Part shown: piece by piece, positions 2,560 to 64,000 of the stretch
How the letters are laid out: each line of letters begins with the position of its first letter
Position numbering within the stretch: position 1 is the first letter of the stretch
Source: Alloprevotella sp. oral taxon 473 str. F0040
GTDB taxonomy: Bacteria > Bacteroidota > Bacteroidia > Bacteroidales > Bacteroidaceae
Length of the DNA stretch: 64,000 nt
Direction: 5' to 3'
NCBI RefSeq assembly: GCF_000318095.2
Contig: NZ_KB290717.1
Coordinates: forward strand, 122,520 to 186,519
The notes under the pieces: generated by a model
What the model was told of the DNA's origin: nothing
The model's input: the letters and a program-made list of their open reading frames with translations, nothing else
The model's database searches: none
Translations under genes and position numbers: made by a program

Positions 2560-3378
2560 ATGTGGATTTCCCATCCCTTTTCCCTCAAAGCTCTATGTCT
2601 TGTAGGGTGTTTCTCCTTTATGGGGATGTCCATTCATGCTGAGCGCAAGCATCGAGCTTCATCAACTGGTGAGCCCAGTGAGCATATCGTACCTGATATG
2701 CTTCCTAAACAGTCGAAGAAGAATGTGCAGACTTCTGTACAGATGATGCAAGTGTCGCGCGGAAATAGCCGCGTGAACACGAAGTTTCGTGAGGGAATAG
2801 ATGTAAGTCGTTATCAGGGAGTAATAGATTGGATGCGTGTAGGTACAGAGGCTAATGTGAGCTTTGTTTACATAAAAGCTACTGAAGGAAGTAGTCTTGT
2901 TGATCCAACTTATGCTTATAACTTAGCTAATGCTAGACAAGCTGGCCTGAGCGTGGGTAGTTACCACTTCTATCGTCCCAAAGTGAGTGTAGATGAGCAA
3001 GTTTCAAATATGACTTCTGTGGTGCTTAAAGCCGATCAGGATTTAGTGCCCCTCATAGATATCGAAACAACTGGAGGTGTTGCCAATGATAAGTTCGTTG
3101 CTGACTTACAAGAGTTTGTTGAGCGTATTGCAGCGTACTATGGCAAGAAGCCTCTTCTTTATACTTATCAGAATTTTTATAATCGTCATCTTGTTGGTAC
3201 TTTTAAAGGTTATCATTGGGTGATGGCGAAGTATAAAGATGAAGAGCCTATGCTCACTGACAACGTGGATTACATGATGTGGCAGTATACACAGACTGGA
3301 CGACTACCTGGCATTCGAGGTAATGTAGACAGGATTCGTCTTATGGGTAACCATAGTCTTACGATATTAGAGATGTAG
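2560..3378 (+). CDS. secreted GH25 lysozyme-type muramidase
   Basis: Predicted peptidoglycan hydrolase of glycoside hydrolase family 25, which cuts the beta-1,4 bond between N-acetylmuramic acid and N-acetylglucosamine. The first 25 or so residues are a signal peptide (hydrophobic LKALCLVGCFSFMGMSIHA); a Ser/Lys-rich linker follows to about residue 75, then the catalytic domain to the C-terminus. Family motifs are GIDVSRYQG at the start of the domain, the catalytic DIE in LIDIETTGG, and the closing WQYTQTGRLPGI. The start at ATG 2560 is 13 bases after the panB stop, so the two are probably co-transcribed, though no functional link is evident. A strong terminator follows. Confidence 0.9.
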   Translation: MWISHPFSLKALCLVGCFSFMGMSIHAERKHRASSTGEPSEHIVPDMLPKQSKKNVQTSVQMMQVSRGNSRVNTKFREGIDVSRYQGVIDWMRVGTEANVSFVYIKATEGSSLVDPTYAYNLANARQAGLSVGSYHFYRPKVSVDEQVSNMTSVVLKADQDLVPLIDIETTGGVANDKFVADLQEFVERIAAYYGKKPLLYTYQNFYNRHLVGTFKGYHWVMAKYKDEEPMLTDNVDYMMWQYTQTGRLPGIRGNVDRIRLMGNHSLTILEM

Positions 3379-3401
3379 GTTTCAAGCATTTCTTCTAATT
3401 T

Positions 3402-3432
3402 AAAAGGAGCCTTTCTTTGGAAAGGCTTTTTT
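3402..3432 (+). terminator. Rho-independent terminator after the GH25 gene
   Basis: Perfect 8-bp stem AGCCTTTC (3408-3415) with GAAAGGCT (3420-3427), TTTG loop and a run of six T on the plus strand. It ends the panB-lysozyme transcript. Nothing gene-like lies between here and the rpmE terminator. Confidence 0.9.
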
Positions 3433-3594
3433 ATTGCTCTAGTATAAGATACTCTTATTGACTAGGTTTGAGGATTAGTGGATAATTCTTGCTTTGACGT
3501 GCCCATCCAGTAAAATGGGTAAGAGGTTTATCAGTGTGAGAAAAGTCTAATCCAGATTTTAAGAGTATTTGATGGAGAGTTTGTGATGAGCCTA

Positions 3595-3631
3595 AAGAAA
3601 AAGCCCCATACTTTGGATGAAAGTATGAGGC
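3595..3631 (-). terminator. terminator of rpmE
   Basis: Twelve-position stem (3603-3614 with 3620-3631, one mismatch) and a GGATG loop, followed on the minus strand by a T-rich tail. Placed 27 bases after the rpmE stop codon. Confidence 0.8.
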
Positions 3632-3657
3632 ATTGCTATGATGTTGCGTCGTGAGTC

Positions 3658-3909
3658 TTATTTACGGCTCTTACCGTAGCGGCTCATGAACTTATCTACG
3701 CGACCAGCAGTATCGACGAGCTTGGACTTACCAGTGTAGAATGGGTGAGAAGTTGAAGAAATTTCAAGCTTCACGAGGGGGTAAGTTTCACCTTCGAATT
3801 CGATGGTGTCAGAAGTCTTGCAAGTAGAGCGAGACAAGAAAACATCGCCGTTAGACATGTCTTTGAAGACTACAGGACGATAATTTTCGGGATGCAAATC
3901 CTTTTTCAT
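3658..3909 (-). CDS. rpmE: 50S ribosomal protein L31, type B
   Basis: Component of the large ribosomal subunit at the central protuberance. The 83-residue protein starts [15 protein letters not shown] and contains the type B landmarks ([35 protein letters not shown]). It lacks the CxxC zinc ribbon of type A L31, which makes it the zinc-independent form; in many bacteria this form is used under zinc shortage, but in Bacteroidales it is commonly the only copy. The gene is monocistronic, with a promoter about 150 bases upstream and its own terminator, so the leader of about 140 nt could be regulatory. Confidence 0.97.
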
Positions 3910-4060
3910 TGTGGTTAGTTGTTTGTTGTTCGTTTATTAGTAAATAAACACAGAATTGTCCTGAATGCCACCGAGCGAACACGGCCACGATTCATTGGAT
4001 AATGGACAAATCCACGCGGCACTTTCTAATAGAGTCGTGCCTTAATTTGGTCTAAATCGC

Positions 4061-4093
4061 TGCAAAGATACGATATTTCACAGAGTTGGCCAA
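4061..4093 (-). promoter_or_regulatory. promoter of rpmE
   Basis: On the minus strand TATCTTTG (4063-4070) is a perfect -7 box and TTGG (4090-4093) lies 19 bases upstream, matching the Bacteroidetes primary sigma promoter form. Transcription would start roughly at 4055. Confidence 0.75.
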
Positions 4094-4129
4094 GCATCTG
4101 AGCGATAATTTATTGTGGTCAGGCAAAAA

Positions 4130-4255
4130 CTTTGTGATTTACAAGTTTCTCTCGGAGATTCTAGAAAAATTCTCTGAGAAGTTTGGGAGTATCTCGGACT
4201 TTTTAGATTAGTTCTCCTACTTTTTGTTGAAGTTGATAGGAGCTTTATAGATCTT
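4130..4255. repeat. degenerate 21-bp tandem repeat, non-coding copy
   Basis: Units begin at 4151 (ctcggag), 4172 (ctctgag), 4193 (ctcggac) and 4214 (ctcctac), exactly 21 bases apart; weaker units can be seen at 4130 and 4235. The same unit with the same period is found in frame inside the kinase gene near 31 kb and around 15.3 kb. Read on the minus strand in one frame, this copy gives fragments such as KVGEL and LREFF broken by stop codons, resembling the heptads of the kinase. It occupies most of the 419-base gap between rpmE and menCE. Confidence 0.7.
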
Positions 4256-4328
4256 CCTGTGATGGACTTCGTTATGCTCTTAGGATTTCGACACAACTAT
4301 CCTGTATGTTGGGGTAGAGTATGGTAAC

Positions 4329-6413
4329 TTATCGCAAAGATAGGTTTTTTCTTGCTATTTCTTTTGCAGATGCACGTGCTGGTTTTCCTGTCTCAGTGAG
4401 GGGAATTGCTTTCACACGAAGGTAGTATCGAGGTTGTTCGTATTTTGCTAGTGATTTAGCACAATGCTCTCTTAAGAATACCTCTTCTACGTCTGAAGAA
4501 TATAGGCACACTAATGCTTCACCGAGGGCAGCATCGGGAATTGAAGTGAGGAGTATACCGTATTTTTCCGCTTGCAATGTAGCTTCAATTTTTTCCAGAT
4601 GCAATTTTATTCCTCCCGAACACACTACATTATCACGTCGTCCAAGAATGCGGAATTGACCTAAGTCATTGATTTCTGCAATATCATTGGTGTCGAGTAG
4701 ACTATTATTGGTGATGGAATCTGAGACAACCAAGCACCCATTTGTATTGAGAGAAACCTTTACACCTCTTAATGGGGAATACCAATCAGTACGACCATCT
4801 CCATTGAGAAGTCGCAAAGCGATATGAGAGAAGGTCTCAGTCATACCATATGTGCTATATACCCGTCCGCGACAGGATTGAAGATTATCTTCTAGCGTAT
4901 GGCTGACATTGCCTCCTCCAAGAATGATGCAGTCGGTAGCCTCTAGGAGAGCTTTTTCCTTTGCTACTTCGAGAGATGCTGCTGCTTGTAGTGGAGTTAA
5001 GGCTACAAATTGCGGAGCTACTGATAGATGTTCATAAGGGTGCAGACTAGGAGCAGCTGTAATCAGTCGTAAGTCGCCTATCAGTGCGCGAACGACCATC
5101 ATTTTCCCCGCTACGTATTGCAGAGGAAGGCAGAGGAGGGTGGTAGATCCAGGAGTGATGTGTAAAGTTTCAAGGCTGCGTTGGGCACTGGCACGCATGG
5201 CACTTTTAGTGGCTTGCATCACTTTGGGCTTGCCCGTGCTGCCACTCGTTTGTAATTCTACGACATCTTTGGTGCTATCATTCCATTCTTCGGTGAAGGT
5301 GCGGAGTTCTTGCTTAAAAGAACGCTCTTTCTCTGTACCATTCCACAGCTCATCTCCCTTGATTTCTAAAGAAATAGCCGTATAATTATCTGCAAATAGT
5401 TGACCAGTACCCAGTCCTTGTGGCATCAATTCTCCATCTTGCTTAGTTTGGTCTTGCTGTCTGCGTGCCGTCCAATGCGCAATAGCATTCAAGCCTACGT
5501 TGCTCTCAAGTGCTGAGGTAGCCCAGTGAGCAATTCCCCGTGCATCAGCAAGTTCTTCCCATTCCTCTGCTCCTGAGAATCCTCCATGTAAAGAAGGTTT
5601 CAATATGACATAGTGTGGACGAATTGTATCCAGCAGACGTTCCTTCTCTTCCCTTGTATGAATCCCGATAAGTTCTTCGTCTAAGGCTATGGGAATTGGG
5701 CTTTTGCGGCAGAGCTCAGCCATAGCCTCCCATTGCCCAGCACGAATAGGTTGCTCAATGCTATGAATATCGAATGCTGCAAGTTGTAGTAGTTTCTCCA
5801 TGGCTTCGGTAGGAGAAAAGGCTCCATTGGCATCGAGTCGAAGTTCAACCTCGGCTTTTGAATATTTTTGTCGCAAGATACGCAAAAGATTCAGTTCTGC
5901 AGCAAAGTCAATAGCACCGATTTTGATTTTAACGCAACGATAACCTGCTGATAACTTCGTTTCCATGCGTTCTAGCATCTCTTCTGCATTGCCCATCCAC
6001 ACAAGACCATTGATAGAAATACCTTTTTCTCCACGTGAAAATGGGGTAGAGGACAGTTGAAAAGGATTACCATTTTGGGCGTAAGAGCGAAGTGAGAGCT
6101 CTGCAGTCTCAAATCCCATCAAAATAGAGGGATAGACTTGTAAGAACTCGCGAGGTAGTTGTCCTGACTTTTCCCATAATTGACAGGCTTCTGCAAGAAT
6201 CTCAACATAATTAGGGACATCATCGCAGCTCAGTTGAGGAAGTGGAGCACACTCACCAATGCCATAAACAGGGCGTCCGCAATAATATGCGCGCGCTTCT
6301 ACATACCAAACTTTGCGCTCGTGATAAACACCGCGAGAAGTCCCTGCAGGTTGGAGGAAATGCAGAGACTTCTCGGAATAAGTTATTGTAAGTTGCTCGA
6401 AATCGTGCGACAT
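4329..6413 (-). CDS. menCE: fused o-succinylbenzoate synthase / o-succinylbenzoate-CoA ligase
   Basis: Two consecutive steps of menaquinone synthesis in one 694-residue chain. Residues 1 to about 350 are MenC, an enolase-superfamily enzyme that dehydrates SHCHC to o-succinylbenzoate: the KxK of CVKIKIG, the metal ligands in LRLDANGAF, SIEQP and ALDEE, and ILKPSLHGG are all present. From about residue 375 the chain is MenE, an acyl-adenylate ligase that makes the CoA ester: phosphate loop TSGSTGKPK near 388, YGMTET near 522, and the hinge LGRRDNVVCSGGIK near 590. All key residues of both halves are kept, so both activities are expected. The two genes are separate in most bacteria I know. It is the last gene of the men run, 45 bases after menB. 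Confidence 0.93.
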   Translation of the reverse strand: MSHDFEQLTITYSEKSLHFLQPAGTSRGVYHERKVWYVEARAYYCGRPVYGIGECAPLPQLSCDDVPNYVEILAEACQLWEKSGQLPREFLQVYPSILMGFETAELSLRSYAQNGNPFQLSSTPFSRGEKGISINGLVWMGNAEEMLERMETKLSAGYRCVKIKIGAIDFAAELNLLRILRQKYSKAEVELRLDANGAFSPTEAMEKLLQLAAFDIHSIEQPIRAGQWEAMAELCRKSPIPIALDEELIGIHTREEKERLLDTIRPHYVILKPSLHGGFSGAEEWEELADARGIAHWATSALESNVGLNAIAHWTARRQQDQTKQDGELMPQGLGTGQLFADNYTAISLEIKGDELWNGTEKERSFKQELRTFTEEWNDSTKDVVELQTSGSTGKPKVMQATKSAMRASAQRSLETLHITPGSTTLLCLPLQYVAGKMMVVRALIGDLRLITAAPSLHPYEHLSVAPQFVALTPLQAAASLEVAKEKALLEATDCIILGGGNVSHTLEDNLQSCRGRVYSTYGMTETFSHIALRLLNGDGRTDWYSPLRGVKVSLNTNGCLVVSDSITNNSLLDTNDIAEINDLGQFRILGRRDNVVCSGGIKLHLEKIEATLQAEKYGILLTSIPDAALGEALVCLYSSDVEEVFLREHCAKSLAKYEQPRYYLRVKAIPLTETGKPARASAKEIARKNLSLR

Positions 6414-6458
6414 AAGATGACGATTTACAAAAGTGTTTCGGTAGAAGAGGGAGAAAAC

Positions 6459-7316
6459 TTAGGGAAGTTTGGGGAACTTGCTCCAGTCAGGCTTTCGCTT
6501 TTCAAGAAAAGCTTGACCACCTTCGTGTGCTTCATCGAGAAGGTAGTAGAGCATCGTGGCATCACCCGCCAACTCTTGGATACCAGCTTGACCATCGAGC
6601 TCAGCATTCAAGCCTGCTTTAATCATGCGCAGGGCAAGAGGAGAGTGTTCCATCATGCGTTTTGCCCATGCCACCACTTCATCTTCGAGTTGTTCAAAAG
6701 GAACGACCTTATTGACCATGCCCATACGCTCTGCTTCTTCGGCAGAATAAAGGTTGCAAAGGAACCAAATCTCACGTGCTTTCTTTTGTCCTACGATGCG
6801 TGCCATGTAGCTTGCTCCAAATCCAGCATCAAACGAACCAACTTTAGGTCCTGTTTGTCCAAATTTTGCATTTTCGGAGGCAATAGTGAGGTCGCACATA
6901 AGATGTAATACGTGGCCACCGCCCACAGCAAAACCATTGACCATGGCAATAACGGGCTTAGGTAGTGAGCGGATTTGCTTCTGTACCTCCAAAACATTCA
7001 AACGTGGCACGCCGTCTCCTCCCACGTAACCGCCACGTCCTTTCACGTGCATATCGCCACCAGCACAAAAAGCTTCGGTATGTAAACGCTCTTCTTCTGT
7101 TTGTCCTTCTTGCAAAGGCGAGTGGGCACCAGTTAAAACAACCACATTAATGTCTGGATTCTCGCGGCAAGTGCGTAGTGCATCAGAGATTTCCATGATG
7201 GTTGTTGGCGTAAACGCGTTGCGGTATCGGGGGCGATTGATGGTGATACGAGCGATGCCTTCGAAGAAGTCGAAGAGAATTTCTTGATAGGTGTGGAGGG
7301 AAGTCCAAGTTCTCAT
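6459..7316 (-). CDS. menB: 1,4-dihydroxy-2-naphthoyl-CoA synthase
   Basis: Crotonase-fold enzyme that closes the second ring of the menaquinone head group, converting o-succinylbenzoyl-CoA to DHNA-CoA. The 285-residue length is normal. The crotonase core is visible: [17 protein letters not shown], the oxyanion-hole segment [19 protein letters not shown], and [14 protein letters not shown], which is diagnostic for MenB. Lies between menD (34 bases upstream) and menCE in the same direction. Confidence 0.97.
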
Positions 7317-54119: not shown

Positions 54120-56066
54120 TTAGTATTCGCCCATTTGTTCCGCCACCTCTGAACGAACACGTGCTGCGAAGTCATCAATAGACATCACCTCCTGTCCGCC
54201 ACCTTGACCTTGTACTCGTACGGCGACAGTGCCTTCCGCAGCTTCTTTTTCGCCTACTACGAGTAGGAAGGGGATGTGCTTCATCTCATTATCACGAATT
54301 TTTCGACCAATTTTCTCACTGCGATCGTCCACAAGAGTCCGTACCTCCGCTGCTTCTAAACGGTCGCGTACTTCGCGCGCGTAGTCGTTAAACTTATCAG
54401 AAATAGGAAGTACTACAGCTTGGTCAGGCATTAGCCAAAGTGGGAAGTGACCAGCAGTGTGTTCAATGAGTACTGCAACGAAGCGTTCCATTGAGCCAAA
54501 TGGAGCACGGTGAATCATTACAGGGCGATGCTTTTTGTTGTCCTCGCCTGTATACTCAAGTTGGAAACGCTCTGGTAGATTGTAGTCTACTTGAATCGTG
54601 CCTAATTGCCAACGACGACCTAAAGCATCTTTTACCATAAAGTCGAGTTTTGGTCCGTAGAAGGCAGCTTCGCCATATTCTATTTTAGCATTAAGACCTT
54701 TCTCTTCACAGGCTTCTATAATAGCCTGTTCTGCTTTTTCCCAATTGTCTTCAGAACCAATATATTTAGCGCGATCTGTTTGGTGGCGAAGTGAGATTTG
54801 CGCCTCAAAATTTTCGAACTTAAGTGCCTTAAAGATGATGAGGATAATGTCCATCACATTAAGAAACTCTTGTTTTACTTGGTCAGGACGACAGAAGATA
54901 TGGGCATCATCTTGAGTAAATCCGCGCACACGAGTCAAACCATGTAGCTCTCCACTTTGTTCGTAGCGATATACTGTTCCGAATTCTGCTAAACGCAAAG
55001 GAAGATCTTTGTAAGAGCGAGGCTTCCAAGAATAGATAGCACAGTGGTGAGGGCAGTTCATCGGTTTGAGGAAGTATTCTTCGCCCTCTTCTGGAGTTGT
55101 GATGGGTTGGTAAGAGTCCTTGCCATACTTTGCATAGTGGCCTGAAGTGACATAAAGATTCTTAGAACCAATATGTGGCGTCATCACTTGTTGGTATCCA
55201 AATCGTTTTTGGATGTTCTTCAAAATGTCTTCAAGGCGCAAACGAAGTGCTGTACCTTTGGGTAGCCACATAGGGAGACCCTTACCCACTAGTTCCGAAA
55301 ACATGAAGAGTTCCATTTCCTTACCGATTTTACGGTGGTCACGGCGTTTGGCTTCTTCTAAGAGAGCCAGATATTCATCGAGCATCTTCTTTTTCGGGAA
55401 GGTAATACCGTAAACGCGTGTGAGCATAGGTCGATTCTCATCTCCGCGCCAATAAGCAGAGCTTACAGACATGACCTTGGCTGCTTTAATGGGCGCAGTA
55501 GTCATAAGGTGAGGACCGCGACATAAATCGGTAAATGAACCTTGAGTGTAGGTGGTGATGTTGCCATCTTCTAAATCTGCTATCAATTCGTTCTTATAGA
55601 ATTGACCGCGATCACCAAAGAACTTGAGAGCCTCATTTTTGGAAATAGGACGACGAACAAGTGCTTCTTTCTTGGCAGATAATTCGAGCATCTTCTTTTC
55701 TATCTTCACGAAGTCTTCTTCACGAATCGTTACGCCTTCAGGGGGCATAACATCATAATAGAAACCATTCTCAATAGCAGGACCAATGCCAAATTGTGTA
55801 CCAGGGTAGAGTTCTTGCAGAGCTTCAGCCATCAGGTGTGCTGAAGTATGCCAGAAAGTTCGCTTACCCTCTTCATCATCCCATTTATAAAGGGAGATAG
55901 TTGCATCTTCTGTGATTGGGCGGTTGAGTTCTACGGTCTTGCCATTGACCCCACATGACACAACGTCTTGAGCCAAACGACTAGAAATGCTTTCAGCTAT
56001 CTGCAGTCCCGTAACACCATTTTCGTATTCACGAACACTGCTGTCGGGAAAAGTAATCTTTATCAT
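54120..56066 (-). CDS. thrS: threonyl-tRNA synthetase
   Basis: 648 residues. N-terminal TGS domain (about 1-60), editing domain with [12 protein letters not shown], class II catalytic core ([36 protein letters not shown] with zinc-site Cys, [14 protein letters not shown]) and anticodon-binding C-domain. In many Bacteroidetes thrS is followed by infC-rpmI-rplT; here it is followed by nspC behind a hairpin, so that linkage is absent. Confidence 0.98.
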
Positions 56067-56964: not shown

Positions 56965-57507
56965 GGTAATAGAGTCTTCTGGTTATCTGTGAGTTTCTAC
57001 TTCTCATTTTCTCTGACGTAAAGTCGAAAGGATAAAAGTGTTTAGCCTACATTCGGAGACTATGTTGTATAGAAAGTCTTTTAATTAGAATACTGACTTA
57101 CAAGTACAGACTTAATGGTTGTATGTAGAACGCTGCATACTATGAGATGATATTTATGGTTATCCCAGCCTTGTGTTGCGTGATAGTGTTATTTGTACTA
57201 TCAAGTAGACACACCTGAATAGCTCTATTCTTTAAAACACGATTGGATCTGATAAGATCTTTAGCATTGGAAGATTCCATCCCTATGAACAACTTTTGTT
57301 GTTTCTAGGGGTGGTTTCGAGATGTTTATTCTTAGAAAATGAGTAGAAGTTTATCTCTCTGCCAATATATATCTTTGTGCTTTGGTATGTGATAGTGGAG
57401 AGTAATAGTGATTAGAAAAAGAGTTGGGCTGGGTCAGACAACTTCCAATGAGAACTTAAGCTTAAAGAATAGAGGAATACACATAGGATTGTGTATTCCT
57501 CTATTTT
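56965..57507 (+). ncRNA. candidate non-coding transcript, about 540 nt (or about 120 nt from a second start)
   Basis: Bounded by the promoter at 56926-56955 and a strong terminator. It does not contain motifs of RNase P RNA, tmRNA, SRP RNA or 6S RNA that I can recognise. From the second -7 box a transcript of about 120 nt would result. Purely inferred from the signals at both ends. Confidence 0.35.
57471..57507 (+). terminator. perfect 13-bp terminator hairpin
   Basis: AGAGGAATACACA with TGTGTATTCCTCT, 6-base loop and ATTTTATG after it. It ends transcription from the left although no gene is there. Confidence 0.8.
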
Positions 57508-58054
57508 ATGTGTATATTCGAAAGCTGTTCTTATGAATTTATATTCTTACGTTTTCTTTCTCATTCGAGGTTTATACTTCGTGTTGCTTTTTATAGATGA
57601 AAGCCATAAGTTTATTGAGTTCATTTGTGTTTGTGCTACTCGTTCAAAAAGTATGAGCCTTAAACAAAACTCTTTGTAAAAGGTAATAGTCTTCCCTTTA
57701 TAATCTTTCTGCAATATTCACGTGGTGTTTAATGGTTGTGACAGTGTCTCTAGGTGTTTCGTCACAATAACAAAGAGATATGATTTTTTAGGAAGCTTAG
57801 AAGACAAGCTACTGTTTGGTCATCCTCTTTAAAACTGTTTGATAGTTAATACACTGTTTATGGAAGATATCTTTGTAAAGACAGCTGTTAGATAGTCTAA
57901 TCACACTGGATTTAAGAAAAATCTCCTCTTTCTTGTGCCTTTTATGAGCATTTTTGTAGGATTTGCCCCCAAAAAATAAACATATTCTCGTTGATTTCCT
58001 TGTGCGAATTGAAGCACCTTGCTATCTGCTTAAAAATAGAAGCAAGGATAATCT

Positions 58055-59119
58055 TCATTGATTGATGATGTCCATCTGTTGACGTACCGATTCTTCGTGG
58101 ATAGTTTCAAATAGAGTGGCTATAAAATCTGCATTCATGCCGCATAAGGCTCCTTGTGCACCGCGTTTTACTAGAATTTCGTTGTAACGATTTGCTTGAA
58201 ATATAGTAATATTGTGATCTCGCTTGTAACGTCCTATTTGACGGCATACACGCATTCTTTTTGCTAGTAGCTCCATCATTTGATGATCATATTCGTCAAT
58301 CTGTCGTCTGAAGTCTACTATTTCGTCAATTTGTTGGTGTTCGTTGCGAATGATGAGCAATGAAAGGATATAATTTAGTACGTCAGGCGTAATTTGTTGA
58401 GCTGAATCGCTCCATGCTTTGTCGGGAGTGCAGTGGGTTTCTATTATGAGCCCATCAAATCCTAAGTCCATTGCTTGTTGACAGAGAGGAGCTATGAGTT
58501 CACGTTTGCCTCCAATATGACTTGGGTCACAAATGATTGGCAATTCGGGAACTCGTCGACGAAGTTCTAAGGGTATTTGCCATGTTGGGGTATTGCGATA
58601 TAGTTTATTATCATAGCTTGAGAATCCACGGTGTATGGCAGCTAAGCGTTTGATGCCTGCCTGGTTGAGCCGTTGCATGGCACCTATCCATAATTCTAGG
58701 TCGGGACTTATCGGATTTTTGACTAAAATAGGTAAATCTATTCCTTGTAAACTATCTGCGAGTGATTGCATTGCAAAGGGATTTGCCGTAGTGCGCGCCC
58801 CTATCCAGAGCATATCTAAGTCATATTTTAGACAGAGCTCCACATGTTCAGGAGTGGCTACTTCGGTGCCGACTAGCATCCCCGTAGAAGTCTTAACTTG
58901 TTGCAGCCATGTCAAGGCCTTTTCACCATTCCCTTCAAAACCTCCAGGTTTTGTACGAGGTTTCCATACACCTGCTCGAAAAAGATGGCAACCTTTTTGT
59001 GCCAGCGCTTGAGCGGTGCAGAGCATTTGCTCTTCTGTTTCAGCAGAGCAAGGGCCAGCTATAACTAGAGGGCGATGTGAATCGGAGGGAAGATTTAGAG
59101 GAAGAATATCGAGTTCCAT
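58055..59119 (-). CDS. 3-deoxy-7-phosphoheptulonate synthase fused to chorismate mutase (type II)
   Basis: 354 residues. Residues 1-260: DAHP synthase of the KDO8P-synthase-like type (VIAGPCSAET, FRAGVWKPRTKPGGFEG, VGTEVA, IWIGARTTANPFA-type, ICDPSHIGGKR). Residues about 265-350: a chorismate mutase of the AroQ helical type (VDFRRQIDEYDHQMMELLAKRMRVCRQIGRYK). It directs carbon into phenylalanine and tyrosine. ATG 59119 gives the normal start. In many Bacteroidales it sits in an operon with pheA, an aminotransferase and tyrA; here only a broken tail of the aminotransferase precedes it and nothing follows. Own -7 box TATCTTTG at 59167-59174. Confidence 0.94.
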   Translation of the reverse strand: MELDILPLNLPSDSHRPLVIAGPCSAETEEQMLCTAQALAQKGCHLFRAGVWKPRTKPGGFEGNGEKALTWLQQVKTSTGMLVGTEVATPEHVELCLKYDLDMLWIGARTTANPFAMQSLADSLQGIDLPILVKNPISPDLELWIGAMQRLNQAGIKRLAAIHRGFSSYDNKLYRNTPTWQIPLELRRRVPELPIICDPSHIGGKRELIAPLCQQAMDLGFDGLIIETHCTPDKAWSDSAQQITPDVLNYILSLLIIRNEHQQIDEIVDFRRQIDEYDHQMMELLAKRMRVCRQIGRYKRDHNITIFQANRYNEILVKRGAQGALCGMNADFIATLFETIHEESVRQQMDIINQ

Positions 59120-59234: not shown

Positions 59235-59372
59235 TTAGTTGCGTGTTAGAAAGTGTTGCAATACGAGGGTCATCATGTTTTCATCCGAGAGTGTGAAATA
59301 CGAATATACCGTTCTCCATTACTGCCGAAAATAAAGCCCGGAGCTACAAAAATATTCGTACTTTCTAAATCG
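59235..59372 (-). pseudogene. broken C-terminal remnant of a class I/II aminotransferase
   Basis: On the minus strand the frame gives NIFVAPGFIFGSNGERYIR, the diagnostic C-terminal part of a Bacteroidales aminotransferase usually encoded next to the DAHP synthase gene. After RIS the frame is lost at a CACACTCTC run; removing CA restores LSDENMMTLVLQHFLTRN and a stop at 59235-59237. The 5' part (more than 350 codons) is gone, cut at or near the IS30 left end. Thus the gene was truncated by insertion or rearrangement and then frameshifted. Confidence 0.8.
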
Positions 59373-59492
59373 AAGTGCAACAAACCATTCGTTTTTTCAT
59401 AGGTTCTAATCTATAAGAAAACGCGGGTTTGCCTCGCAGCTGGGGCGCATAGCCCCGAAGAGCGATACCGGCAATACATAAAAATGAGTCCC

Positions 59493-59525
59493 TTTTTGAG
59501 GACTCTGGGAGATTATTTATCTTTG
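59493..59525 (+). promoter_or_regulatory. promoter of the IS30 transposase
   Basis: TTTTTG (59493-59498), 19 bases, TATCTTTG (59518-59525); start of transcription only a few bases before the expected ATG 59533. A GC-rich hairpin GGGGC/GCCCC lies at 59442-59456. Confidence 0.72.
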
Positions 59526-59532
59526 TATTACT

Positions 59533-60468
59533 ATGTACTAACAACTAACCTCAGAGCAAAAATCGCAAATCTTAGCCTTACAGCAAAGAAAATGCCCAAG
59601 AAAAGAGATTGCGCGTATCGTGGGAACTAGTCAATCCACACTTTCTCGTGAATTGAAACGCAACAGCACTCAGTCGGGCAAATACATCTGGTGCAAGGCG
59701 CATGCAAAGGCTATGGAACGTCGCAAGCGTTCGGTTCACAATGCTACTCTTGCACCTGAATTGGTGTGGAGAATCAAACAACTCATAATAGAAGAACAAT
59801 GGTCTCCACGACAAATATCAGGCGTCTTGAAGAAAGAAGGAATCAGTGTGTCGTACCAAAGTATCTACAACATCATACATGCTGATGCTACTGGAACCTT
59901 GGCACAACATACGCGTCATAAGCTAAAATACAGACGTAGACCTAAGCACAAACATTTCCCTATAGCCGATAGAATCAGCATACACCAACGTCCAGAACAA
60001 GCTGACGGCAAGAGGTTTGGAGACTACGAGATGGACTTAATCGTGGACCGATTTGGTCATGCCATCCTCACCATCGTGGAACGTTCTACGAACATGCTCT
60101 TCATGACCAAACTTGCCCATGGGAAGAAGGCTGAACCATTGGCTAAGGAGGTCAGACGCCTACTTCTACCCTACAAGGAATACATCAAGACCATTACCAC
60201 CGATAATGGTCCTGAATTTGCCGCACACAAGCTCATTACGAAATATTTGGGAGCGGTCGTCTATTTCGCCGATCCCTATTCTTCATGGCAAAAAGGGGCT
60301 ATCGAGAATACGAACAAACTCATTAGACAATATATACCTAAGCAAGCAAACTTTGATGATTACACCGATAAAAAAATTGCAATGATACAGAAGAAAATCA
60401 ATTCCAGACCCAGACAGAAACTTAATTTTGTAAGCCCCAAAAAAGAGTTCTACAAAAAAGTATTGTAA
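59533..60468 (+). pseudogene. IS30-family transposase with a stop at codon 3
   Basis: From ATG 59533 the frame reads Met-Tyr-stop (TAA, 59539-59541) and continues with QLTSEQKSQILALQQRKC, the normal N-terminal helix-turn-helix of an IS30 transposase. Related copies have Lys at this place as far as I recall, so AAA to TAA is the likely change. The rest (to 60468) is intact: integrase core with EMDLIVDRFG, TTDNGPEFAAH and ENTNKLIRQYIPK (DDE residues). A GTG at 59620 could restart translation, but would lose about 29 residues of the DNA-binding region. Confidence 0.85.
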
Positions 60469-60553
60469 TTTTGCACTTGCTGGTTGACTCTACGTGTGGT
60501 CTCTTGTACTACTTATCCCCTTTGTGTTGTGTTATTTTTTACAAGATATTAAG

Positions 60554-63445
60554 ATGAAGGTTTTTCTCTTTTTCCTTGGATTAATATTCTATTTTCCGGC
60601 TTTTTCGCAAAAGGATTCTCTCAAAGTGTTTGGCCATATTGCAGACGCTTTCACTGGTGCAATTATTGAAGATGGCACCATCGATGTACTGTCTCCCGAT
60701 TCGACTGTGCTCTTTTCTGGAGAATGGGTGTACAATATCGATGATGACGTGCGAACGGCTTCGCTCTATTATTGTAAAATTCCCCAAGAAGGCAACTACA
60801 TTCTTCGTCTTCAGCACCCCAATTATTTCCCGCTCTACTTACCCATTGCCGTAAAGCTGGGCGGGCGCAACAATGGTGTTGTAAGCATTCCTCAAAAAGC
60901 CCTTATGCGCAAGCGTCCCAAGGAGCAAAAGCTGGGAGAGGCCGTGGTGAGGGCAACGAAGATAAAAATGGTGATGAAAGGCGACACCCTCGTTTACAAC
61001 GCCGACGCCTTCCAACTTTCGCAAGGCTCGATGCTCGATGCGCTGATCGAGCAACTGCCGGGGGCGCAACTCAATGTGAGCGGCGTAATCACGGTGAACG
61101 GCAAGCGGGTGAGCAGTCTGCTGGTCAATGGTAGGGACTTCTTTCGCGGCGACCCCAAAATTGCGTTGGAAAACCTTCCTGCCTACATGGTCAACAAAGT
61201 CAAGGTCTACGAGCAACAAAGCGACTTTGAGGAGATGACGGGGCTGAAGGAAATGGAGCGGCCGCTGGTGATGGACGTCAATCTCAAACGGCAATATTCC
61301 ATCGGCTGGATTGCCAATGCAGAGGCAGCACGCGGCACGAAAGACAAGTACTTGGCGCGATTGTTTGCGCTGCGATTTTCGGACTTGGCGCGCTTAGCGA
61401 TTTTCGGCAATCTCAACAACACCAACGACACGCGACGCCCGGGAGCAAAGGGCGAGTGGTCGCCGTCCTATCTGCCTCAGGGCTTGCAAACTAGCCAAAC
61501 AGCTGGAGCGGAATACAACTACGAAAATCACCCCAAGACGTTTGAATGGACGAGCAATGTGGACGTGACACACACCGACAACTACACGCTCACCACCCAC
61601 AACCATGAGAGTTTTCTACCCACTCAGCGCTCCTTCTCGCTCAGTCGTTTGGAAGCAAACAACCACACGACGTGGTTCAACACGAGCCATCGATTTTCTC
61701 TGAAAAAAGCGGTGCGACAATCTGGGCAAATCAGTTTCAACTACGACAAAAATACCAACGACGCCACGCAACGTGCCGGCGAGGTGGGCGTCAATCCGTT
61801 TGAGCTGGTGCCCAACGGAGAGGTGCTTGACGAGCTGTTTCGCCCGGGTAACACGCGTCTGCAGCAGCTGGCACGCAACCGCCGCTATTCGCTGATGCGC
61901 GGCAATGGTGAGAATTGGCGCTTGAGTGCTCCCTATCAATTACGTTGGCGTCCCTTTGAACAGTTCGGGGTGAACGACTTCTTCTCTTTTGATTTCTCCG
62001 GAGTTTACGACCGACATCGTGCTCAGACATTCGACCACTACCGTTTGGAGTATCTCGGTGTGGGAAATGGAACTAACGACTTCCGCAACCACTATCGCAA
62101 CGCTCCCTCCCATCATTGCAATTTCAATACGGAAGCATCTTATTTCATGCCCCTTGGCACGTTTTGGCCGACCTTGAGCTACAAATATTCGCAAGACTAT
62201 CGTGATGCCAACACCAACTTCTACCGCCTCGACCGGCTTGCGGGATGGGGTGCCGACACCAACTTTGCCCTAGGCATGCTCCCCTCGGCAACGGCAGACA
62301 TGATGCAGGCATTCGACGCGCCCAACAGCGGACAATCGCGTTTATGGCAACGGCATCATCAGGTGAGCCTGCGCATGGAATACCGCACGAAGCATCAAAA
62401 CCGCACCACGATAGTCCTCCAACTTCCGTTGCGTTGGGAACTGGATCATCTGTTGTTCGATAAAGTTGGGCAGCACTTCGACCGAAATCGAACGCAGGCG
62501 TTGTTTTCTCCGCAAGTCTATCTTCATCAACAGTTTCAGAAAGGAGAGACCAGCCACGTATTTACCTTCAACTACTCGCTGTCACGCGCAATGCCCGACT
62601 TTATCTATGCCCTCGAATTGGAGGATAGTGCCAATCCGCTCTACATCCAAAGGGGAAATGCCCACTTGGTGCCAAGCACTACGCAAAACCTTTCATTCAC
62701 AATGTTTACGCTGAAAAAGCACAGGAAACTCTACAACCTGAATGTATCCTATCAACGTACTTCTAACGCGCTAGCCTCAGAACGCACCTATAATCCTGCC
62801 ACGGGAGGCTATATGACGCGCCCGGTCAATGTAAACGGCAACTGGCGCACCGACGGCACTTTCAGTACCAATGGATAGTTTGGTGCGAACAAAGCTTTCG
62901 ATTGGAGCAACCAGGCCTCTTTCTCTTACGACCATAATGTCGATATGGCCAACGTGGTCGGCAGCACCACACATGAGTTGAGCACCATCGGCAGTCTTTA
63001 TCTCCGTGAACGACTTTCGGTCAACTATTCGCAACGAGGTTGGCACTTGGGAGCAAAAGTGCAAGGCAGTTACAATCATATTACTGGCCGACGCAGTGAC
63101 TTCAAGGAGATTAGCGCGTGGGACTACAGTTACGGACTGACTGCACGCCTCCCCCTGCCGGGCAAGGTGGGGTTGAACACGGATTTCACCGTATTCAGTC
63201 GGCGAGGCTACACCGACACGCAGCTCAACACCAACCACCTCATTTGGAACCTTCGCCTCGAGCGCAGCATTCTGCACGGAAATCTGACCTTTGCTCTCGA
63301 TGGCTTCGACCTGCTGCATGAACTTTCCAACGTGACACGCACGGTCAATGCGCAAGGCCGCACCGAAATCTACCACAACGTCATCCCTTCCTACTTCATG
63401 TTGCACGCCATCTATAAATTCAACCTGTCACCTAAAACACGATAA
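60554..63445 (+). pseudogene. outer-membrane beta-barrel protein, TonB-receptor-like, interrupted by an amber stop
   Basis: Signal peptide MKVFLFFLGLIFYFPAFSQ, an N-terminal region typical of the large OMP_b-brl_3 group (GDTLVYNADAFQLSQGS, PGAQLNVSGVITVNGKRV, NGRDFFRGDPKIALENLP) and a long barrel. At 62876-62878 TAG interrupts the frame (after NG), and the same frame continues to a natural end with a stop at 63443-63445 and 963 codons in all; the last 189 codons would be lost. The gene is clearly GC-richer than the core and uses GCG, CTG and CGC freely, so it was probably acquired. Only 75 bases separate it from the IS30 right end, so its natural promoter may have been lost. Confidence 0.85.
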
Positions 63446-63446
63446 A

Positions 63447-63667
63447 ATGAAGACAAGCAGATACAATCTCTACTTACAAGATTCAACAGGCATGGTTATA
63501 TATAATGCTAAGTCTGATGAAATTGTAGCACTCACCCCTGAACTTGCAGACATTTTAGAATAGAAAAATGTGATTATCAAGTGTTGCAGACCTTGCACCC
63601 TGAATTATGTTCTTGTCTACCCCAATTCGAGATAAACAAGAATTCCTTATCTCGAATTAGGGTATAG
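63447..63667 (+). pseudogene. truncated N-terminus of a radical SAM/SPASM peptide-maturase-like protein
   Basis: Starts at ATG 63447, one base after the barrel stop. Frame 1 gives 38 residues, MKTSRYNLYLQDSTGMVIYN then ALTPELADILE and a stop; the SRYN...YN..SD...AL.P pattern is the usual start of SPASM-type RiPP maturases. After the stop a shift of frame continues plausibly (LQTLHPELCSCLPQFEIN) until 63667. The catalytic CxxxCxxC part is absent. The assignment is from pattern recall and the remnant is short. Confidence 0.5.
63618..63664. repeat. 18-bp inverted repeat with 11-base loop
   Basis: TACCCCAATTCGAGATAA (63618-63635) pairs with TTATCTCGAATTAGGGTA (63647-63664) with one mismatch. No T-run follows, so not a standard terminator; it is at the junction between the maturase fragment and the transposase remnant and may be a mobile-element end or a recombination scar. 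Confidence 0.75.
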
Positions 63668-63856: not shown

Positions 63857-64000
63857 ACCGAATTCAGGTAGAATTTGTACCTTCTAACGATACCGCTCCA
63901 ATGTGGTCAAGAGAGTTTAAACCAAAGTTATAGCACAGGAACCATCAATATTATTTTAAGTATAATCATATGTTACTTACCGAATTACCTACATATCTCT
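63857..64000. other. window edge
   Basis: An ATG at 63970 opens a frame (MLLTELPTYL) that runs off the window; this may be the next gene, but there is too little to tell. Confidence 0.3.

What the first reader, a model, noticed from the sequence alone, without database searches (positions are those of the whole stretch)
59235..60478. IS30 sits at the break of the aromatic amino-acid operon
The aminotransferase that normally precedes the DAHP synthase/chorismate mutase gene is reduced to a frameshifted C-terminal tail that ends at the IS30 left end. On the other side of IS30 the sequence is unrelated and GC-rich. So IS30 marks a deletion or rearrangement joint, and the loss of pheA/aminotransferase/tyrA neighbours may mean changed phenylalanine/tyrosine synthesis.
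Basis: partly seen in the sequence, partly recalled or inferred. Interest (0 to 1): 0.55.

Follow-up and report, generated by a model that had tools for sequence, protein, structure and literature searches.

The report
Decayed phenylalanine/tyrosine operon beside an IS30
A gut-type Prevotella relative has lost its genes for making phenylalanine and tyrosine, with an IS30 element sitting exactly on one broken gene; this is ordinary gene decay, but the two-domain enzyme left behind keeps a chorismate-mutase half whose known partners are all gone.

Summary
A frameshifted C-terminal scrap of the aromatic-operon aminotransferase (59235-59356, minus) ends exactly at the left end of an IS30 element (59357-60494). 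IS30 is not a chromosomal joint: 5.2 kb beyond it the gene order of the nearest named relative (Prevotellaceae bacterium Marseille-P2826) resumes. The gap now holds IS30, a horizontally acquired outer-membrane-protein gene (the GC-rich part) and a DUF2971 gene, in place of pheA and most of the aminotransferase. tyrA, on the far side from IS30, decayed in place, so IS30 alone did not cause the loss. No prephenate dehydratase or dehydrogenase family match exists in the assembly (96.7% complete), so Phe/Tyr auxotrophy is predicted. The DAHP synthase/chorismate mutase fusion gene is intact and is the only DAHP synthase. Twelve genomes including this one keep the fusion with both prephenate-using families undetected. 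Of 13 fusions classed as orphans (the 13th genome has a sub-cut-off dehydrogenase match), 13 keep every invariant mutase residue. Published splitting experiments on a related fusion suggest why: the synthase needs the mutase domain. An unknown prephenate use is not excluded.

The parts
54120..56066 (-). thrS (threonyl-tRNA synthetase), left syntenic anchor shared with relative L008
   Evidence: ORF of 648 aa; L008 10316-13062 aligns to 56190-53445 at 81%. The name thrS is my reading of the sequence; no family search was run on it.
57325..58054 (-). decayed tyrA (prephenate dehydrogenase) region; best remnant 57587-57739
   Evidence: tblastn of L008 TyrA: 47% over 51 aa with two in-frame stops, E = 7.3e-7; global alignment score 625.5 vs 349.8 +/- 8.7 for 20 mononucleotide shuffles; syntenic place
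58055..59119 (-). intact DAHP synthase/chorismate mutase fusion gene (354 aa)
   Evidence: PF00793 131.8 bits and PF01817 83.4 bits; 90% identical to L008 protein; only DAHP synthase in the genome, the second hit at C17:276172 being a weak 26% match, probably KdsA (name inferred)
59235..59356 (-). frameshifted C-terminal scrap of the operon aminotransferase, ending at the IS30 left end
   Evidence: ends at the IS boundary set
59357..60494 (+). IS30-family insertion sequence
   Evidence: ends by homologous copies L163, L187, L164; terminal repeat 16/28
59533..60468 (+). IS30 transposase; the usual ATG frame has TAA as third codon, open from 59620 (GTG) on
   Evidence: NF033563 transpos_IS30 241.7 bits vs cut-off 80 (residues from 59620); TAA seen
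60537..63507 (+). horizontally acquired segment: outer-membrane beta-barrel protein gene interrupted by an in-frame TAG at 62876-62878, plus the first codons of a following gene
   Evidence: 92% nt identity to G006:C2 and 91% to G009:C3 at unrelated loci; OMP_b-brl_3 on the piece after the stop; G003 has only a 36% relative
63447..63563 (+). 38-aa truncated ORF (MKTSRYNLYLQD...) behind the outer-membrane gene
   Evidence: no Pfam/NCBIfam match; same start present behind the G006 copy
63970..64000 (+). start of a DUF2971 gene (288 aa) that runs beyond the window (L118 5990-6853)
   Evidence: PF11185 49.5 bits

Best explanation
This is a phenylalanine/tyrosine branch operon that decayed piecemeal after the lineage no longer needed to make these amino acids. 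Shown: pheA is gone; the aminotransferase is a frameshifted scrap capped by an IS30 copy; tyrA is a remnant in place; a horizontally acquired outer-membrane gene and a DUF2971 gene occupy the gap; chromosomal order on both sides is otherwise that of the relative; no PDT or PDH family match exists elsewhere in the assembly. Inferred: the organism takes Phe and Tyr from its surroundings. The DAHP synthase/chorismate mutase fusion is kept because chorismate is still made (chorismate synthase present) for other products, and because the synthase domain works poorly without its mutase domain, so the mutase cannot be shed.
For: Synteny on both sides with L008; remnants of aminotransferase and tyrA in the expected order. 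PF00800 absent from G000 while 50 of 58 genus genomes have it, and PF02153 absent while 50 of 58 have it; in both searches 17 of 19 genomes that are at least 90% complete have it, the two misses being G000 and G056. The operon aminotransferase is found in G000 only as the scrap plus 3 remote homologues of 22-25% identity. Fusion intact; chorismate synthase in 10 of 10 genomes tested. P. gingivalis fusion: splitting the domains lowers DAHP synthase kcat from 6.3 to 0.58 per s and raises both Km about 5- to 6-fold (PMC12202928, section 3.1 read). Phe/Tyr double auxotrophy is common: 380 genomes in a table of predicted phenotypes (PMC9026213, table passage).
Against: The assembly is 24 contigs and 96.68% complete, so a gene in a gap is possible. 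Mutase residues needed for catalysis, not only for folding, are perfectly kept, which is more than a pure scaffold requires. The order of events (IS30 first, or decay first) is not resolved: no target-site duplication is visible, and the transposase itself is damaged. Chorismate users (trpE, pabB, menF) were not searched.
Confidence: 0.8

Rival explanations
1. IS30-mediated rearrangement: the element marks a joint where a chromosomal deletion or inversion removed pheA, the aminotransferase and tyrA in one event.
For: The aminotransferase scrap stops exactly at the IS30 left end, and about 2.4 kb present in L008 (3334-5777) is missing to its right.
Against: Gene order resumes with the S41 peptidase 5.2 kb away; tyrA decayed on the opposite side of an intact gene; the flank is an acquired gene and not a distant native region. 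A small IS-adjacent deletion of pheA itself stays possible.
Confidence: 0.12
2. The branch is still used: prephenate made by the retained mutase feeds an unrecognised enzyme (a non-homologous dehydratase/dehydrogenase or another prephenate user), so these bacteria are not auxotrophs.
For: 13 of 13 orphan fusions keep all 10 mutase positions invariant elsewhere, six of them catalytic; terminal branches are not longer in the mutase domain of orphans than of operon-borne fusions (median ratio 0.79 of 13 vs 0.76 of 47, p = 0.29).
Against: No candidate prephenate enzyme among shared neighbours of the orphan fusions: HerA, MurI, LpxD, LpxC and the like. Phe/Tyr auxotrophy is common in gut bacteria. 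G000 itself has a higher mutase/synthase branch ratio (1.66) than L008 (0.80) and 5 vs 2 polarised mutase-domain changes.
Confidence: 0.1
3. Phe and Tyr come from arylacetate salvage by an indolepyruvate-type ferredoxin oxidoreductase, which made pheA/tyrA dispensable.
For: All 10 genomes tested have 2-oxoacid:ferredoxin oxidoreductase-like subunits that match TIGR03336 weakly.
Against: 0 of 10 genomes reach the IOR alpha cut-off (650.9 bits; best 86.3), and operon-bearing genomes carry the same weak matches.
Confidence: 0.05
4. Assembly or sequencing artefact: the genes exist but the locus was misassembled or missed.
For: Draft assembly of 24 contigs.
Against: The locus lies inside a 673,420-base contig with synteny on both sides, and the remnants carry many independent lesions.
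Confidence: 0.03

Closest known systems
pheA - aminotransferase - DAHP synthase/chorismate mutase - tyrA operon of Prevotella and other Bacteroidales (here L008, Prevotellaceae bacterium Marseille-P2826)
   Same: Same gene order, same flanking genes, 90% identical fusion protein
   Different: In the window only the fusion gene is intact; pheA is absent, the aminotransferase and tyrA are remnants
DAH7PS-CM bifunctional enzymes of Prevotella nigrescens and Porphyromonas gingivalis (PMC12202928 and work cited there)
   Same: N-terminal type I DAHP synthase plus C-terminal type II chorismate mutase in one chain of similar length (354 vs 366 aa)
   Different: Here the enzyme is encoded without any recognised prephenate-consuming enzyme in the genome
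IS30-family insertion sequences of the same genus
   Same: 90% nt identity over 1,141 bases to a copy in G003, 87% to one in G009, similar ends
   Different: This copy has a stop as third codon of the usual transposase frame and is the only near-complete copy in its genome

Membership tests
IS30 family | IS30-type transposase (NCBIfam NF033563 over its cut-off) | tested here: met
   241.7 bits vs 80
IS30 family | Terminal inverted repeats and ends shared with other copies | tested here: met
   Ends shared with three copies; repeat imperfect, 16 of 28
IS30 family | Short target-site duplication (2-3 bp, recalled) | tested here: inconclusive
   ATT before 59357, TGT after 60494: no duplication seen; expected if one flank was later lost, so this lowers only the claim of a simple intact insertion
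DAHP synthase/chorismate mutase fusion | PF00793 and PF01817 domains in that order in one chain | tested here: met
   residues 15-254 and 271-348
DAHP synthase/chorismate mutase fusion | Catalytic mutase residues (E. coli R11, R28, K39, R51, Q88; numbering recalled) | tested here: met
   all present in G000
DAHP synthase/chorismate mutase fusion | Both enzyme activities, and dependence of the synthase on the mutase domain | not testable with these tools
   shown by others for P. gingivalis (PMC12202928); not for this protein
Predicted Phe/Tyr auxotroph | No prephenate dehydratase (PF00800) in the genome | tested here: met
   0 matches in G000; 50 of 58 genus genomes match
Predicted Phe/Tyr auxotroph | No prephenate dehydrogenase (PF02153) in the genome | tested here: met
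   0 matches in G000; 50 of 58 genus genomes match; remnant at 57587-57739
Predicted Phe/Tyr auxotroph | Growth requirement for Phe and Tyr | not testable with these tools
   no growth data

The most novel reading that the evidence does not exclude
In many Bacteroidota lineages the chorismate mutase of the DAHP synthase fusion outlives every known prephenate-using enzyme, yet its active site stays perfectly conserved. Either the mutase active site is an obligatory sensor and scaffold that sets DAHP synthase activity (a fusion that cannot be undone), or these bacteria have an undiscovered prephenate-using enzyme.
Probability: 0.35. Interest if true: 0.55.

Novelty: new member of a known kind. 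Interest (0 to 1): 0.35.

Why it matters
The locus is a clear worked example of amino-acid pathway loss in a gut-type bacterium, caught with remnants still readable. Its wider interest is the fusion gene that remains. If the synthase cannot work without the mutase, pathway loss leaves an enzyme making a dead-end product, which would explain a recurrent pattern and can be tested with one purified protein. If prephenate is still used, a missing enzyme waits to be found.

Tried and rejected
Chromosomal rearrangement at IS30: rejected by resumed synteny. A full operon elsewhere in the genome: rejected by family searches. Arylacetate salvage through IOR: not supported. A structured RNA near the S41 promoter or in the locus: no Rfam match at gathering score in L118 or L008. 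A prephenate enzyme beside orphan fusions: neighbours in 16 loci (15 others plus L118) were clustered; the fusion itself apart, the widest shared neighbour is HerA in 6 loci, and the ones I put to Pfam are housekeeping genes. Relaxed selection on orphan mutase domains: no significant difference. That test used 47 of the 48 loci with all three operon genes (L075 left out by oversight) and dropped G032, L066 and L086. Solved-structure search at E <= 1e-10 gave 10 distinct sequences, matching over the synthase domain; none was matched over the whole fusion. Taxonomy look-up of Marseille-P2826 found no entry.

Literature on orphan fusions: searches found no paper describing them in the held library. 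One search (Prevotella, prephenate dehydratase, auxotroph) gave no paper; one search gave GapMind, of which I saw passages; one search listed 10 of 1,390 loosely matching papers, of which I saw the listing. This is a limited search.

Full report
What was checked. The window is G000:C17:122520-186519 of an assembly of 2,553,017 bases in 24 contigs, 96.68% complete. The nearest named relative found with the DAHP synthase/chorismate mutase protein is L008, Prevotellaceae bacterium Marseille-P2826, 90% identical in that protein.

The aminotransferase scrap. L008 has the order S41 peptidase (minus), pheA 3881-4726, aminotransferase 4704-5891, synthase/mutase 6001-7065, tyrA, then thrS (pheA and tyrA are supported by the family hits at the G003 places, the other names are read from sequence). 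In the window the synthase/mutase gene is intact at 58055-59119. Upstream of it the minus strand reads NIFVAPGFIFGSNGERYIRIS in one frame and TLSDENMMTLVLQHFLTRN-stop in another, ending at 59235. This is the last ~40 residues of the aminotransferase with one frameshift. tblastn of L008's protein finds it at E = 5.5e-8.

IS30. Copies from G003 (90% over 1,141 bases) and G009 (87% and 81%) align from 59356/59357 to 60493/60494 and then stop. The best terminal repeat fit gives 59357-60494 (16 of 28). The scrap therefore ends exactly at the element. No 2-3 base duplication is seen. The usual transposase start is followed by TAA as third codon. It is the only near-complete copy in this genome; the other matches are fragments.

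Right of IS30. From 60537 to 63507 the DNA is 92% identical to a stretch of G006 and 91% (60566-63444) to one of G009, at unrelated places in those genomes. Their synthase/mutase proteins are only 65-66% identical to the window's, while the close relative G003 has only a 36% relative of this gene. This points to horizontal transfer. The gene encodes an outer-membrane beta-barrel protein (PF14905 on the piece after the stop) and carries an in-frame TAG at 62876-62878, where the ORFs of G006 and G009 run on. GC is 0.513, the same as in G006. A DUF2971 gene follows.

Synteny resumes. The S41 peptidase of L008 is found at G000:C17:188198, about 5.2 kb right of IS30, 83% identical, and L008 3-3100 aligns through L118 at 76%. 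Of L008, positions 3334-5777 (pheA and most of the aminotransferase) have no counterpart: tblastn of PheA gives no hit better than E = 0.74 in the window or 4.0 in L118. On the left, tyrA is a remnant: 47% over 51 residues with two stops, and an aligned region 63% identical over 513 positions with many gaps. IS30 is therefore one lesion among several and not a chromosomal joint.

Genome-wide. PF00800 (prephenate dehydratase) has a match in 50 of 58 genus genomes and none in G000. PF02153 (prephenate dehydrogenase) has a match in 50 of 58 (49 over the cut-off) and none in G000. In both, 17 of 19 genomes that are at least 90% complete have it; the misses are G000 and G056 (99% complete, 6 contigs). 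Of 10 genomes tested, all 10 have the fusion and all 10 have chorismate synthase.

Recurrence. Among 80 named loci around the fusion gene, 55 have more than 3 kb upstream and 1.5 kb downstream. Of these 55, 38 hold all three partner genes, 5 lack tyrA, 1 has the aminotransferase alone, and 11 have none. I took the genomes of those 11, of three partial loci (L020, L021, L034) and of four operon-bearing controls (L010, L012, L013, L026): 18 of the 80. PF00800 matched in 9 of 18 and PF02153 in 9 of 18 (8 over the cut-off). Eight genomes had neither: G058-G064 and G068. G065 (Capnocytophaga) lacked PF00800 and had a PF02153 match under the cut-off. The two Riemerella genomes have both, elsewhere. 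With G000, G001, G017 and G056 this gives 12 genomes with the fusion and neither family. Completeness is not told for the eight, G001 is 85% and G017 77% complete, so some absences may be gaps; G000 and G056 are the strongest cases. In the genus, G019, G020 and G032 also lack both but are 55-82% complete, and G032's fusion lies near a contig end; I did not count them.

State of the orphan fusions. In an alignment of 88 fusions (13 orphans, namely the 12 above plus G065's; 75 others), 10 mutase positions are invariant among the others, leaving out L066 and L086. The 13 orphans break none of them; the positions of E. coli residues R11, R28, K39, D48 (Q here), R51 and Q88 are among them (numbering recalled). 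The 75 others include a few loci whose operon status is unknown because of contig ends. On a fixed tree of 86 sequences the ratio of mutase to synthase terminal branch length has a median of 0.79 in 13 orphans and 0.76 in 47 operon-borne fusions (p = 0.29). G000 itself stands somewhat higher (1.66, against 0.80 for L008), and polarised changes in its mutase domain are 5 against 2 in L008. That is weak evidence for mild relaxation in this lineage and goes against a strictly unchanged mutase.

Why keep the fusion. In the P. gingivalis fusion, splitting the domains lowers DAHP synthase kcat from 6.3 to 0.58 per second and raises Km for PEP from 96 to 515 uM and for E4P from 115 to 718 uM; the introduction reports the same dependence for P. 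nigrescens, citing Bai et al. 2019, which I did not read (PMC12202928, passages and section 3.1). So a bacterium that still needs chorismate cannot easily drop the mutase domain. This explains retention of the domain; whether it explains retention of every catalytic residue is open.

Known ground. Phe/Tyr auxotrophy is common in gut bacteria: a published table lists 380 genomes predicted to need both (PMC9026213, passages), and Phe auxotrophy has a median frequency above 20% in human gut microbiomes (PMC10689445, passages). The finding is therefore a new case of a known kind. The recurrent orphan fusion with an intact mutase active site is the part worth following.

Noticed in passing
60537-63507 and L198 5683-8653, L199 5078-7956: An outer-membrane beta-barrel gene 91-92% identical in three genus members lies at three unrelated places, with no mobile element seen beside the G006 and G009 copies in the ORF lists. 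In G006 and the window it is followed by the same first codons of a truncated ORF (MKTSRYNLYLQDSTGMVIYN).
   Followed up: partly
L118 7470-7543 (G000:C17, just upstream of the S41 peptidase gene) and L008 3260-3333: A 74-base non-coding stretch is 92% identical between two genomes whose adjacent coding DNA is 76% identical. No Rfam match; found in no other species' fetched locus. Possibly a promoter or leader.
   Followed up: partly
L068, L071, L087 (orphans); L070, L072, L074: A clade of fusions with HerA upstream (6 of 6 loci) and no aromatic operon beside them shares A at S84 and F at E52 of the mutase active site (E. coli numbering, recalled), which may mark an old loss of the branch.
   Followed up: partly
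L008 9254-10144: A 296-aa gene between tyrA and thrS in the relative is absent from the window, another local indel in the same interval.
   Followed up: no
57001-58000: The tyrA remnant interval is the most AT-rich 1-kb bin of the window (GC 0.337), as expected of decaying DNA.
   Followed up: yes
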